In this document: one piece after another, positions 4,367 through 12,061 of the stretch | Numbering within the stretch: the stretch's first letter is position 1 | Layout: each line of letters opens with the position of its first letter | DNA from: [Mycobacterium] crassicus | Lineage (GTDB): Bacteria; Actinomycetota; Actinomycetes; Mycobacteriales; Mycobacteriaceae | Direction of reading: 5' to 3' | Assembly (NCBI RefSeq): GCF_020181615.1 | Contig: NZ_CP084029.1 | Span: 513,911 to 577,910 of the forward strand | DNA length: 64,000 bases | Made by a program: the position numbers and the translations under genes | The notes under the pieces: model-generated | What the model was told of the DNA's origin: nothing | Databases searched by the model: none | What the model saw: only the letters and a program-made list of their open reading frames with translations

Positions 4367-5617
4367 TCAGGTGGTGGCGCCGGGCTTGCCGGCGGTACCG
4401 GGAGTGCCCGTCACGCCGTGGACAGTGCCCGGTCCGGCCTTGCCTGCCGGACCGGCGAGACCGCCCACGGCCCCGTCACTGCCGGCGCCGCCATTACCGC
4501 CGTTGCCGCCGTTGCCGCCGTCTCCACCGAAGCCCACGCCGTTGCCGCCGTTGCCACCATGGCCGCCGGTTCCGCCGATACCGCCGGCGCCGCTGGCCGT
4601 GCCACCGATACCGCCGACACCGCCGTCGCCGCCATTGCCACCCAGGATGCCCAGGACGATCGGGGTGCCGCCGCCGCCGTTGCCGCCGTCGCCACCGGCT
4701 CCACCGGTGCTACCGGCCCCGGTCGCTGCACCGCCGTCGCCGCCGGCACCGCCGTGGCCGGCGCCGGCCGGGTCTCCGCTGCCGCCGACCTTGCCGCCGG
4801 TGCCGCCGTTGCCGCCCGCGCCGCCGGTAGTACCGGTCCCGGTGGCGGCTCCACCCATGCCGCCGTGACCGCCGGCCCCGCCACCGCCGAACTGCTGACC
4901 GCCGTCGCCGCCGATCCCACCGTGACCGCCGGCGCCCGCGGTGCCGAAGTCGGTCGCGGCGCCGTGACCGCCGTCGCCGCCGGCGCCACCGTTGCCGAAC
5001 ATCGTCCCGCCGGCACCGCCGTCGCCGCCGTTGCCGCCCGCGTCACCATCGATTCCGGCCGCGCCGTGGCCGCCGTTGCCGCCGTTGCCGAACAGGCCGG
5101 CGTGCCCGCCGTCGCCGCCGGCCATGCCCGCCACGGTGGAGGTCCAGCCGTCGCCGCCGTCACCGAACCACACGCCGCCGTTACCGCCGTCGGGCTCGGC
5201 CTCGGTGCCGTCGGCGCCGTTGCAGATCACGCCGCACGCGTCCGGGTACAACGGGGCGAAGAGTTGGTTGATCGGGGCGGTGAGCTGCTCACCGAGCGGC
5301 GAGTTGAGCCAGCTCTCCATGGCCGCGTGCAGCGGTGTGTAGAAGTCGAACGCGACACCGCTGCCGGCGGCTGATCCGGCCACGTCCCAGGCCGCCGGGG
5401 CGAACAGGCTCTCGAAATCCGCCGACAGATTGCCCCAGGCGGCCGGGTTGAACAGGTCGGTGAACAAGTCCTCGAAGTCCGCGTGCGCGGCCGGGGCGGG
5501 AGCGAGGGCGCCCATGGTCGTGGCTGTGAAAATAGCCAGTGCTGCCTGTACGGTCCTCAGCCCGGCGCCGCGTGTTCGGGAACATTGTTGTCCGCTGCTT
5601 CGGAGATGCTGTGACAT
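4367..5617 (-). CDS. Secreted PGRS-like glycine-rich protein without PE domain (416 aa)
   Basis: I recognise the repeat type, not a function. The N-terminus (1-46) is a Sec-type signal peptide with a hydrophobic core (ALAIFTATTMGALAP) and probable cleavage after AHA. Then comes a short module: DFEDLFTDLFNPAAWG followed by DFESLFAPAAWD, a segment with FYTPLHAAMESWL, and the Cys pair CGVIC at the start of NGADGT. From about residue 145 it is GGxGGxGG repeats to the end. PE_PGRS proteins have an N-terminal PE domain and are type VII substrates; none is present here. AGGAAGG precedes the ATG. It lies opposite two longer paralogues. Confidence 0.85.
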   Translation of the reverse strand: MSQHLRSSGQQCSRTRGAGLRTVQAALAIFTATTMGALAPAPAAHADFEDLFTDLFNPAAWGNLSADFESLFAPAAWDVAGSAAGSGVAFDFYTPLHAAMESWLNSPLGEQLTAPINQLFAPLYPDACGVICNGADGTEAEPDGGNGGVWFGDGGDGWTSTVAGMAGGDGGHAGLFGNGGNGGHGAAGIDGDAGGNGGDGGAGGTMFGNGGAGGDGGHGAATDFGTAGAGGHGGIGGDGGQQFGGGGAGGHGGMGGAATGTGTTGGAGGNGGTGGKVGGSGDPAGAGHGGAGGDGGAATGAGSTGGAGGDGGNGGGGTPIVLGILGGNGGDGGVGGIGGTASGAGGIGGTGGHGGNGGNGVGFGGDGGNGGNGGNGGAGSDGAVGGLAGPAGKAGPGTVHGVTGTPGTAGKPGATT

Positions 5618-5649
5618 TCGGGCCGGCCTTCCTGTGACGGTGGGGCAAC

Positions 5650-11500: not shown

Positions 11501-12061
11501 GGCGCCAACGGTGCCGCGGGAACCAACAGCGGCGGAGCCGATGGCGGGAATGCGGGCAGCGGCGGCGCCACTGCCACCGCCCCCGCGTTGGACGGCACGC
11601 GGTCCAGCACAATCGCTGCCGACGGCTTGGGCGGGCACGCCGAAGGTGTTGCCGGCACCGGCGGCAAGGGCGGCGACGGCGGAGCCGCCGGGGGCGCCGG
11701 AACCACCGCTGGTAGCGGCGGTAACGGCGGTAACGGCGGGAGCGGTCAGACCGGCTTCATCTCCCAGGGCGGGGCCGGCGGTGACGGCGGTGCCGGTGGT
11801 GCGGCTAATGGCGGCACCCAGGGCGATGGTGGCGTCGGTGGTAACGGTGGCGACGGCGCCGACGCGCTGGCCGGCATGATCTTCGTCGGCGGGAGCTCGG
11901 CGGGTACTGACAGCGCTCCGGCTGTCGGTGGCGCCGGCGGCGACGGGGGTGCCGGCCTGACCGGAGGCGCCGGGGGGAGCGGCGGCACCGGTGGCGCCGG
12001 TCTCAACGGCGGGCCCGGCGCTGCGGACGGCGCCCACGGCACGGCCGGTACGTCGGGTTAG
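8501..12061 (+). CDS. Secreted PGRS-like glycine-rich protein without PE domain (1186 aa)
   Basis: AGGAGG at 8486-8491 fixes the start at ATG 8501 rather than the upstream in-frame GTG 8447. A signal peptide ends near residue 34 (PASA-DFDD). The module DFDDLFTDLFDPAAWG (35-50), DFDSLFSGSAWD, YTPLHSALQDW (88-98) and CGMIC (122-126) precedes GGxGG repeats that run to the C-terminus. Non-repetitive inserts (for example NLSQWAPNGPAH, NSAAAFNQYGNQ) interrupt them. A block around YDASTDPNALAGASGG recurs as YDPSADANAASGVSGG about 1.37 kb later, showing internal duplication. No PE domain; function unknown. Confidence 0.87.
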   Translation: MMGRNSRRVVGTASVVGAFLAFGMAPLAAAPASADFDDLFTDLFDPAAWGNLSGDFDSLFSGSAWDLSGSADASGAAMAQMWDTMFYTPLHSALQDWIDSDFGSQVNGVINQMFAPFTEGFCGMICNGADGTETSIDGQTGGLWFGDGGAGWSSNLDGVAGGNGGHAGGIGDGGAGGVGGLGADGGNGGHGGEMWGNGGDGGAGGNATATLAAGNGGNGGSSGQAQDFFGMGALGNGGAGGVGGAGYTGAAGTFANNGDGNGGNGTNGGTGGNGGAGSSFLGMGGNGGTGGAAGNGGAGAAGTAANVNGGTGGNGAAPGTGGKGGAGASLFGGDGSDGALGGGGNGGNGGAGYDASTDPNALAGASGGNGGAGGDGGAYGNGGAGGDAGSGVAGGNGVAGTSGALGTNQGASTPGQAGGAGGTGGAGGNGGSQAGNAGNGGKGGNGADGGVGGAGFGGGIGVPGSLAGATGSAGGAGGAGGSGGAGGSAVHGTGGSGGSAGVGGNGGNGGAGGVLNDTVSTPDGTGPGGDGGAGGAGGDGGAGGTGGVADGVRGNGGDGGNGGTGGAVAQGQNLSQWAPNGPAHSPGGNGGAGGDGGQGLTAGNGGNGGNGGSGGPSTPDIDGGVPGGGVSGGAGGNGGAGGNGGAAIATADGGNGVGGNGGDGGDGGRGQDGESAAALNSAAAFNQYGNQDGGAGGNGGAAGAGGAAAGPDGHAGTDGTMGNGGAGGDGGAGAIFSSGNYGGAHDGGNGGAGGSGLIGGVGGNGGAGADGTAFHAGATNGGNGGANGASADATYTPTTGGNGGNGGNGYDPSADANAASGVSGGSGGNGGNGGDYGNGGTGGNGGSGTNGGAGQNGGSGGSGGAGGKGGTEAGNGGSGGNGGIGADGGAGVAGQITPAVPNSNNPGESTSGGVSFADANGQAGGAGGAGGNAGAGGAAQAAAGNGGNAGTAGSGGKGADGGQAGYTTDDSPPGGPFWTGSGGAGGNGGTGGAGAAGGAGGANGAAGTNSGGADGGNAGSGGATATAPALDGTRSSTIAADGLGGHAEGVAGTGGKGGDGGAAGGAGTTAGSGGNGGNGGSGQTGFISQGGAGGDGGAGGAANGGTQGDGGVGGNGGDGADALAGMIFVGGSSAGTDSAPAVGGAGGDGGAGLTGGAGGSGGTGGAGLNGGPGAADGAHGTAGTSG

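What the first reader, a model, noticed from the sequence alone, without database searches (positions are those of the whole stretch)
4367..12061. A family of three PGRS proteins exported by a signal peptide instead of a PE domain
Seen: three adjacent genes encode GGxGG-repeat proteins that start with a Sec-type signal peptide, then a shared module of about 100 residues (DFEDLFTDLFDPAAWG, a second DFxxLFxxxAW unit, YTPLH, CG[MV]IC, NGADGT), then PGRS repeats. Known: PE_PGRS proteins are type VII (ESX-5) substrates that need the PE domain. Inference: the NGADGT/WFGDGG edge resembles the PE_PGRS junction, so the PGRS body may have been joined to a different export head, giving a parallel surface-protein system. 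The repeated DFxxLFxxxAW unit and the Cys pair could be a binding or anchoring module.
Basis: partly seen in the sequence, partly recalled or inferred. Interest (0 to 1): 0.82.

Follow-up and report, generated by a model that had tools for sequence, protein, structure and literature searches.

The report
Signal-peptide PGRS surface protein family
A relative of Mycolicibacter bacteria carries dozens of glycine-rich proteins that seem to leave the cell through an ordinary signal peptide instead of the special exporter used by their tuberculosis-group relatives, and shared leftovers suggest this was the older design.

Summary
The three window genes encode a Sec-type signal peptide, a mature head and a body matching Pfam PGRS (PF21526) from the CGxIC/NGADGT edge; no PE, PPE or WxG match. 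They belong to at least 57 such loci in this one-contig 4.87 Mb genome (nearest named relatives: Mycolicibacter). The 16 PE domains detected lie in other frames, so no PE_PGRS was detected, although ESX-5 is complete. The shared module is not DFxxLFxxxAW or the Cys pair but a ~30-residue helical cap (YxPxHxxxxxWIxSxxGxxxxxxIN). It recurs in PGRS proteins with secretory starts from genomes lacking ESX-5 (taken for fast growers) and in some true PE_PGRS, notably PE_PGRS11, whose odd linker is this cap. PecA-type protease domains also occur behind Sec, PE and PPE heads, one Sec form in this genome. On a one-gene, midpoint-rooted tree Sec heads are paraphyletic and PE heads nested. Best reading: cap+PGRS first left by Sec; a PE domain replaced the Sec head in an ESX-5-bearing ancestor; the Mycolicibacter group kept the Sec form. 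Export route, surface location and disulfide are inferred. LipY is a published precedent for head exchange.

The parts
4367..5617 (-). Sec-PGRS gene 1 (416 aa)
   Evidence: open frame; PF21526 at 131-198, E 9.9e-12; syntenic ortholog in Mycolicibacter sp. MYC340, head 98.7% identical over 78 aa
5480..5617 (-). predicted signal peptide of gene 1 (cut after AHA, residue 46)
   Evidence: n/h/c pattern by script; SignalP not available
5249..5359 (-). cap module of gene 1 (FYTPLH...WLNSPLG...IN)
   Evidence: re-read; AlphaFold2 helices 41-58 and 61-77 of the mature protein
5222..5236 (-). CGVIC at the GRPLI position of gene 1
4370..5227 (-). PGRS body of gene 1
   Evidence: PF21526 start; its first part modelled as a glycine-rich bundle, nearest solved folds are antifreeze polyproline-II bundles
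5847..8162 (+). Sec-PGRS gene 2 (771 aa)
5847..5999 (+). predicted signal peptide of gene 2 (cut after ANA, residue 51)
6144..6236 (+). cap module of gene 2 (YTPLHAALQDWINSDVGSTVNGVVNQ)
6261..6275 (+). CGMIC of gene 2
6270..8159 (+). PGRS body of gene 2
   Evidence: PF21526 at 142-209, E 1.7e-11
8447..12061 (+). Sec-PGRS gene 3 (1204 aa; start uncertain, GTG at 8447 or an in-frame ATG near 8501)
8447..8602 (+). predicted signal peptide of gene 3
8747..8839 (+). cap module of gene 3
8864..8878 (+). CGMIC of gene 3
8873..12058 (+). PGRS body of gene 3
   Evidence: PF21526 at 143-210, E 7.4e-10

Best explanation
The three genes are members of a large paralogous family of Sec-type PGRS proteins. 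Shown by sequence: signal peptide + variable mature head + cap (YxPxHxxxxxWIxSxxGxxxxxxIN in most) + GRPLI-like lock (GRxLIGDG, GQxLIGDG, CGxICNG and others) + PGRS body, sometimes with a C-terminal domain (GH5 in 7 and DUF2599 in 1 of the 9 own-genome members scanned for one). Inferred mechanism: the signal peptide takes the chain across the inner membrane by Sec and is cut at AxA|[DE]; the cap helices close the first edge of the glycine-rich sail; the sail, as in the published PE_PGRS model, sits in the outer leaflet of the mycomembrane and displays loops or ferries an enzyme. In CGxIC members a disulfide would replace the Arg lock of GRPLI. Inferred history: cap+PGRS is the older unit, exported by Sec in ESX-5-lacking mycobacteria and in the Mycolicibacter group; in an ESX-5-bearing ancestor a PE domain replaced the Sec head. 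PE_PGRS11-type proteins still hold the cap; the ordinary PE_PGRS read here keep only a stretch like INAPTxxLLGRPLIGNG.
For: Own genome: 46 head matches and 46 PF21526 matches merge to 55 loci; 54 of 55 show n-region, h-region and a small-x-small|[DE] site (the 55th is masked there; sites were picked by pattern); two more members by signal-peptide search. 16 PE domains, none in the frame of a PGRS match. Complete ESX-5 locus: EccB 826 bits to solved EccB5, 286 to EccB3. Three further Mycolicibacter-like genomes have 42, 42, 33 PGRS and 14, 15, 10 PE, against 98 and at least 150 PE in two PE_PGRS-rich genomes. A 28-position cap profile from 47 own-genome Sec heads hits 6 of 6 PE+cap loci (E 2.7e-12 to 4.4e-10) and 8 of 11 no-PE loci (1.3e-13 to 9.9e-5), and 0 of 8 ordinary PE_PGRS loci; shuffled frames score E 7 or worse (loci chosen after reading them). 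It also hits PE_PGRS11 of M. tuberculosis, P0083 (9.8e-11), which has PE, PGRS and phosphatase domains, and P0108, P0129, P0134, P0149, but not P0111, P0118, P0239. The PF20729 protease domain sits behind Sec+cap+PGRS (those four), PE+PGRS (P0111; 55% identical to P0108 over 291 aa), PPE+PGRS (P0239) and, in this genome, a Sec head without PGRS (L113). ThiC tree: G030, Sec in all 9 cap-profile loci read, is sister to the PE_PGRS genomes, support 0.95. Cap tree: 10 PE+cap forms in one clade (0.77) among Sec forms.
Against: No experiment; signal peptides were called by script or by eye, not SignalP; 8 of 54 fit a loose Tat pattern. The cap pattern is absent or altered in 15 of 54 members. Sec-PGRS genes in PE_PGRS genomes were not excluded. 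The cap tree is short, midpoint-rooted and weakly supported. Horizontal transfer or repeated head gains would also give mixed heads. Signal peptides are well conserved among paralogs (mean global identity 0.47, mature head 0.29, PGRS start 0.48 in 300 pairs) but not in the gene-1 ortholog pair.
Confidence: 0.75

Rival explanations
1. Reverse history: PE_PGRS is older, and the Mycolicibacter group and ESX-5-lacking species replaced the PE head by a signal peptide.
For: Head exchange clearly happens in this protein class: Sec, PE and PPE heads on the same protease domain, and a review passage says the same of LipY (PMC7550000). The roots used here are midpoint roots.
Against: Of 25 PGRS loci read from the 14 ESX-5-poor genomes, 24 have a readable start and none shows PE (by eye; Pfam for 8 of them); the 25th, L082, is cut by a contig end. 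12 of those 14 genomes have no EccB match above 41% identity to this EccB5. On the ThiC tree as rooted, reversion would be needed in at least three lineages.
Confidence: 0.15
2. Independent fusions: a common cap+PGRS cassette was joined several times, by recombination or horizontal transfer, to whatever export head was at hand, with no single direction.
For: Several N-terminal types precede the same cap: short Sec head, Sec + Pro/Ser-rich stretch, signal-anchor-like (L075, L078, L086, L087) and PE; PF20729 has at least three head types.
Against: The 10 PE+cap forms tried are one clade in the cap tree (0.77), and gene order around the window cluster is kept in MYC340, so vertical descent is at least part of the story.
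Confidence: 0.25
3. The proteins leave by Tat, or as ESX substrates through a hidden signal in the head, the N-terminal hydrophobic stretch being incidental.
For: 8 of 54 n-regions fit RRx[FGAVML][LITMVF]; the head is partly helical; ESX-5 is present.
Against: 46 of 54 do not fit that pattern; Pro at -5 in 47 of 54 (not selected for), Ala at -3 and -1 in 51 and 53 of 54 (partly selected for); no PE or WxG match in 50 heads; 12 of 14 genomes with such proteins outside the ESX-5 clade lack an ESX-5-like EccB.
Confidence: 0.08

Closest known systems
PE_PGRS proteins (ESX-5 substrates)
   Same: PF21526 PGRS body; GRPLI-like lock at its edge; large dispersed paralog family; some members with C-terminal enzymes; PE_PGRS11-type members share the cap
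   Different: no PE domain, a signal peptide instead; lock often GQxLI or CGxIC; found in a genome with no detected PE_PGRS
PE_PGRS11 (Rv0754) and orthologs
   Same: cap YGPxHxxxQxWIxSPxGxxxxPIxN and GRDLIGNG before a short PGRS; a review noted its unusually long linker and the changed P in GRPLI (PMC7550000, passages)
   Different: PE head; phosphoglycerate-mutase-like domain
PecA / PE_PGRS35 / PE_PGRS16 aspartic proteases (PF20729)
   Same: PGRS + PF20729 also occurs behind a Sec head with cap (P0108, P0129, P0134, P0149), and PF20729 behind a Sec head without PGRS in this genome (L113)
   Different: characterised members have PE heads (PMC6819658, passages)
LipY lipases with PE, PPE or signal-peptide heads
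   Same: published precedent for a Sec head and a PE/PPE head on one enzyme, depending on species (stated in PMC7550000, passage)
   Different: lipase, no PGRS, not a family of dozens in one genome (recalled)
PGRS-domain proteins of M. smegmatis and other Mycolicibacterium
   Same: probably the fast-grower branch; a 2025 review reports two in M. smegmatis and calls their N-termini questionable (PMC11939664, section 2.2 read)
   Different: that review leaves open whether they have a PE domain; the M. smegmatis genome itself was not examined here by name

Membership tests
PE_PGRS | N-terminal PE domain (PF00934) | tested here: not met
   no hit in the 3 proteins or 50 family heads; 16 PE domains elsewhere in the genome
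PE_PGRS | PGRS repeats (PF21526) | tested here: met
   E 7.4e-10 to 9.9e-12 in the 3 proteins; 46 matches in the genome, 42 over the cut-off
PE_PGRS | GRPLI motif at the PGRS edge | tested here: not met
   the three window proteins have CG[MV]IC; 9 of the 54 members with a readable edge motif have Arg at that place
PE_PGRS | ESX-5-dependent secretion | not testable with these tools
   ESX-5 genes are present; needs a mutant
Sec (signal peptidase I) substrates | n-region, hydrophobic h-region, AxA-type cut site | tested here: met
   by script in 54 of 55 loci; SignalP not available
Sec (signal peptidase I) substrates | cleavage and SecA dependence | not testable with these tools
   needs wet work
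Tat substrates | twin-arginine motif | tested here: not met
   loose Tat pattern in 8 of 54; for those 8 Tat stays open
Head-exchange class (LipY-like) | one body behind Sec and PE/PPE heads | tested here: met
   PF20729 behind Sec, PE and PPE heads; cap+PGRS behind Sec and PE heads
Polyproline/polyglycine-II bundle proteins | glycine-rich PGII bundle fold | tested here: inconclusive
   model of the first 205 mature residues, pLDDT 83; best PDB matches are springtail and snow flea antifreeze proteins, E 1.6e-4, but TM at most 0.59 and rmsd 9.6-14.3 A

The most novel reading that the evidence does not exclude
PE_PGRS proteins, a hallmark surface family of tuberculosis-group mycobacteria, arose by swapping a PE domain for the signal peptide of an older Sec-exported cap+PGRS protein after ESX-5 was gained; PE_PGRS11 is the fossil of that step. 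It follows that the sail and its GRPLI or CGxIC lock, not the type VII machine, carry what is needed beyond the inner membrane, and that the Mycolicibacter group runs a full-size PGRS surface system with ESX-5 present but not needed for it.
Probability: 0.5. Interest if true: 0.85.

Novelty: new variant of a known kind. Interest (0 to 1): 0.75.

Why it matters
PE_PGRS proteins are usually treated together with PE and ESX-5, and a 2025 table lists two Mycolicibacter species with zero pe_pgrs (PMC12209268, section 4.1). Here the same kind of body is a family of at least 57 loci (the 55 extracted frames fill about 3.7% of the genome) behind signal peptides, in a genome with complete ESX-5. This bears on a stated open question about the N-termini of PGRS proteins in fast growers (PMC11939664), gives an explanation for the odd linker of PE_PGRS11, and would let inner-membrane export be studied apart from surface placement in harmless strains. 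No Pfam model matched the cap in 50 heads, so a new family definition would find these genes.

Tried and rejected
Protein search with P0002 residues 40-150 returned 816 candidates and no hit; it says nothing about absence, since genome scans find relatives. Tat export: 8 of 54 by pattern, set aside. Hidden PE in the head: none in 50. Hits of the full head profile in PE_PGRS-rich genomes were not counted as Sec heads because the profile includes the linker shared with PE_PGRS; a cap-only profile was built for that. A dedicated, YSIRK-like (name recalled) signal peptide was considered: the signal-peptide profile hits 53 places (150 of 261 candidates scored), 48 of the 55 loci, 2 further members and 3 other proteins (phosphoesterase L112, protease L113, a 164-residue frame in L030), and is better conserved than the mature head, but the gene-1 ortholog pair does not keep it, so it stays a lead. 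The model of a PE+cap protein is poor overall (pLDDT 47); residues 101-240 reach block means of 66-89 with a helix break at residue 116, similar to the Sec model, but it is not used as evidence. Outside the genus, one genome had a single PF21526 hit (22 of 249 genomes in the order matched, 21 in this genus), not followed. For the structure alignment A3 I used 36 of 51 refs, leaving out many without a clear cap, so its conservation figures are not quoted as family-wide.
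Full report
WHAT IS THERE. The three genes are real open frames at the stated places, the first on the minus strand. Pfam finds only the PGRS family in each, beginning at residue 131, 142 and 143, at the CGxIC/NGADGT edge; NCBIfam finds nothing. Each has an Arg-rich start, a hydrophobic stretch and an AxA|D site. The order ThiO-ThiG-SGNH-gene 1(-)-gene 2/3-like heads(+) recurs in Mycolicibacter sp. 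MYC340, which has three plus-strand heads where the window has two. Between the gene-1 orthologs, base changes sit mainly on third codon positions in head and PGRS, not in the signal peptide.

HOW BIG THE FAMILY IS. A head query gave 46 matches and PF21526 gave 46, 42 of them over its cut-off; together 55 places. I took those stretches and read the frames. 46 of the 55 frames hold a PF21526 match; of the other nine, eight are 45-50% Gly after the head and one is cut by a run of N. 54 of 55 show a signal-peptide pattern; the 55th is masked there. Cut sites were chosen by a pattern that asks for small residues at -3 and -1 and D/E at +1, so those columns are partly selected; Pro at -5 in 47 of 54 was not selected for. 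A signal-peptide profile found two more members, one cut by an assembly gap: at least 57 loci. With a 15-kb limit, 34 of the 57 lie in 9 groups, the largest with nine members in 57 kb; the 55 extracted frames fill about 3.7% of the genome.

NO PE_PGRS DETECTED HERE, BUT ESX-5 IS PRESENT. PF00934 matches 16 places; compared by coordinates, none shares an open frame with a PGRS match (nearest matches about 2.6 kb apart). A full ESX-5 locus is present: eccB, eccC, PE, WXG100, eccD, mycP, eccE, eccA in order; EccB scores 826 bits against solved EccB5 and 286 against EccB3, EccD 686 against EccD5. Three Mycolicibacter-like genomes (G022, G069, G016) have 42, 42 and 33 PGRS and 14, 15 and 10 PE; two PE_PGRS-rich genomes have 98 and at least 150 PE (the PE match list was cut, so only counts are used for these genomes).

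THE CONSERVED MODULE. Among 50 aligned heads the mature part is variable except for YxPxHxxxxxW..S..G......IN and LIGDGADGT: Y 44, P 43, H 42, N 48 of 50. The strict pattern [YW]xPxH is missing in 15 of 54. None of 50 heads matches PE; PGRS matches in 4 and nine other families once each at E 0.05 or worse. AlphaFold2 on the first 205 mature residues of gene 1 (mean pLDDT 83) gives loose helices at the start (53-67), a helical hairpin on the cap (41-58, 61-77; 65-86), then a glycine-rich body (80-97); nearest solved folds are springtail and snow flea antifreeze bundles, with modest TM, in keeping with the PGII model of PE_PGRS sails (PMC9436101, PMC10216338, passages read). CGxIC occurs in 11 of 55 members, always with both Cys, and the two Cys fall on the Arg and Gly positions of GRPLIG. 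PMC10216338 gives that Arg a locking role, so a disulfide lock is a reasonable inference. Of nine family members scanned for C-terminal domains, 7 carry glycosyl hydrolase family 5, one DUF2599, one neither; a tenth protein scanned, with the related signal peptide but no PGRS match, carries a phosphoesterase domain. Another protein with a related signal peptide (L113) is a PF20729 aspartic protease without PE or PGRS.

THE SAME CAP BEHIND OTHER HEADS. The full-head profile matched 72 of 148 sampled genomes of the genus, at most 31 candidates scored per genome, but it includes the linker shared with PE_PGRS. Reading loci showed 25 PGRS loci from 14 genomes without an ESX-5-clade EccB: 24 with a readable start, none with PE; 20 with a signal-peptide-like start and four signal-anchor-like (L075, L078, L086, L087); 18 of 25 with the cap. 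Other loci hold PE + cap + PGRS (L077, L097-L100, L103). Pfam confirms PE in those 6 and in 10 ordinary PE_PGRS loci and finds no PE in 10 Sec-type loci (E <= 0.1), three of which carry GH5; in two of the ten the PGRS match is below its cut-off. A cap-only profile of 28 positions from 47 own-genome Sec heads was run on 25 chosen loci: 6 of 6 PE+cap, 8 of 11 no-PE (the three missed, L090, L092, L095, have no visible cap), 0 of 8 ordinary PE_PGRS; shuffles at E 7 or worse. On 12 pooled-database proteins it hits P0083 (PE_PGRS11 of M. tuberculosis), P0104, P0105, P0108, P0116, P0123, P0129, P0134 and P0149, and not P0111, P0118 or P0239. A review had noted the unusually long linker and altered GRPLI of PE_PGRS11 (PMC7550000, passages). 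PF20729 sits behind Sec+cap+PGRS (P0108, P0129, P0134, P0149; starts of P0129 and P0149 uncertain), PE+PGRS (P0111) and PPE+PGRS (P0239), and without PGRS in Mycolicibacterium sphagni P0161 (120 of 1018 hits were listed and 8000 candidates scored).

ORDER OF EVENTS. An EccB5 match of 69% identity or more is in 16 of 30 genomes tested: six Mycolicibacter-like, G030, and nine PE_PGRS genomes. G004 and G043 have matches of 56-63%, which I take for plasmid-type systems and labelled as without chromosomal ESX-5; the other 12 have none above 41%. In a ThiC tree of 29 genomes (G054 had no match) the ESX-5-poor genomes, the Mycolicibacter group, then G030 branch outside the PE_PGRS genomes; support is 0.95 for G030 + PE genomes and 0.95 for the 16 ESX-5 genomes, but 0.21 for the PE genomes alone and 0.58 for the ESX-5-poor group, and the root is a midpoint. 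Head labels rest on loci read, mostly by eye: Sec in 9 of 9 in G030 and 3 of 3 in G323; PE in 3 of 3 in G335, 9 of 9 in G010 (of 11 matches), one or two in the others; G123's start is cut off. The labels for G323 and G335 were assumed and checked. A cap tree of 71 sequences puts 10 PE+cap forms in one clade (0.77) among the Sec forms, next to P0108, P0129 and P0134. PF21526 matched 22 of 249 genomes of the order, 21 in this genus.

WHAT IS KNOWN. PMC7550000 (abstract passage and others) describes PE_PGRS as PE-headed and as having emerged in slow growers, gives LipY as a case of Sec/PE/PPE heads, and recounts that a PE plus GRPLI segment suffices for surface placement in M. smegmatis, which lacks ESX-5. 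PMC12209268 lists zero pe_pgrs in M. terrae and M. engbaekii (section 4.1) and mentions putative Sec signals in a few PE and PE_PGRS proteins, with Sec dependence unconfirmed (passage). PMC11939664 reports PGRS domains in M. smegmatis with doubtful N-termini (section 2.2). Nine paper searches listed no paper whose title or abstract start describes a signal-peptide PGRS family or this cap; the library holds open-licence papers only, so this is not proof of absence in print.

LIMITS.

Noticed in passing
L113:2869-4137 + (own genome 466368-467636): A PecA-type aspartic protease domain (PF20729, E 1.8e-89) behind the family's kind of signal peptide, without PE or PGRS.
   Followed up: partly
L112:2856-4733 + (own genome 1023355-1025232): Protein with the family's signal peptide and a head-like start but a phosphoesterase (PF04185) instead of PGRS.
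   Followed up: partly
P0239: A PPE head, GRPLIGNG, PGRS and a PecA-type protease in one protein.
   Followed up: partly
P0138, P0161 (Mycolicibacterium sphagni): PF20729 proteases without PE or PGRS; P0161 is still named a PE domain-processing protease by NCBI.
   Followed up: no
L022, L025, L035, L039, L045, L055 and L068, L072, L081: GH5 enzymes carried behind cap and PGRS both in this genome and in ESX-5-poor genomes (a relative, P0105, is named endoglycosylceramidase by one source); possible ancestral cargo.
   Followed up: partly
own genome near 656-661 kb, 4550 kb, 4587 kb: Runs of N inside PGRS genes of a one-contig genome, so lengths and counts there are uncertain.
   Followed up: no
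G217: The only genome of another genus in the order sample with a PF21526 hit, E 1.1e-6.
   Followed up: no
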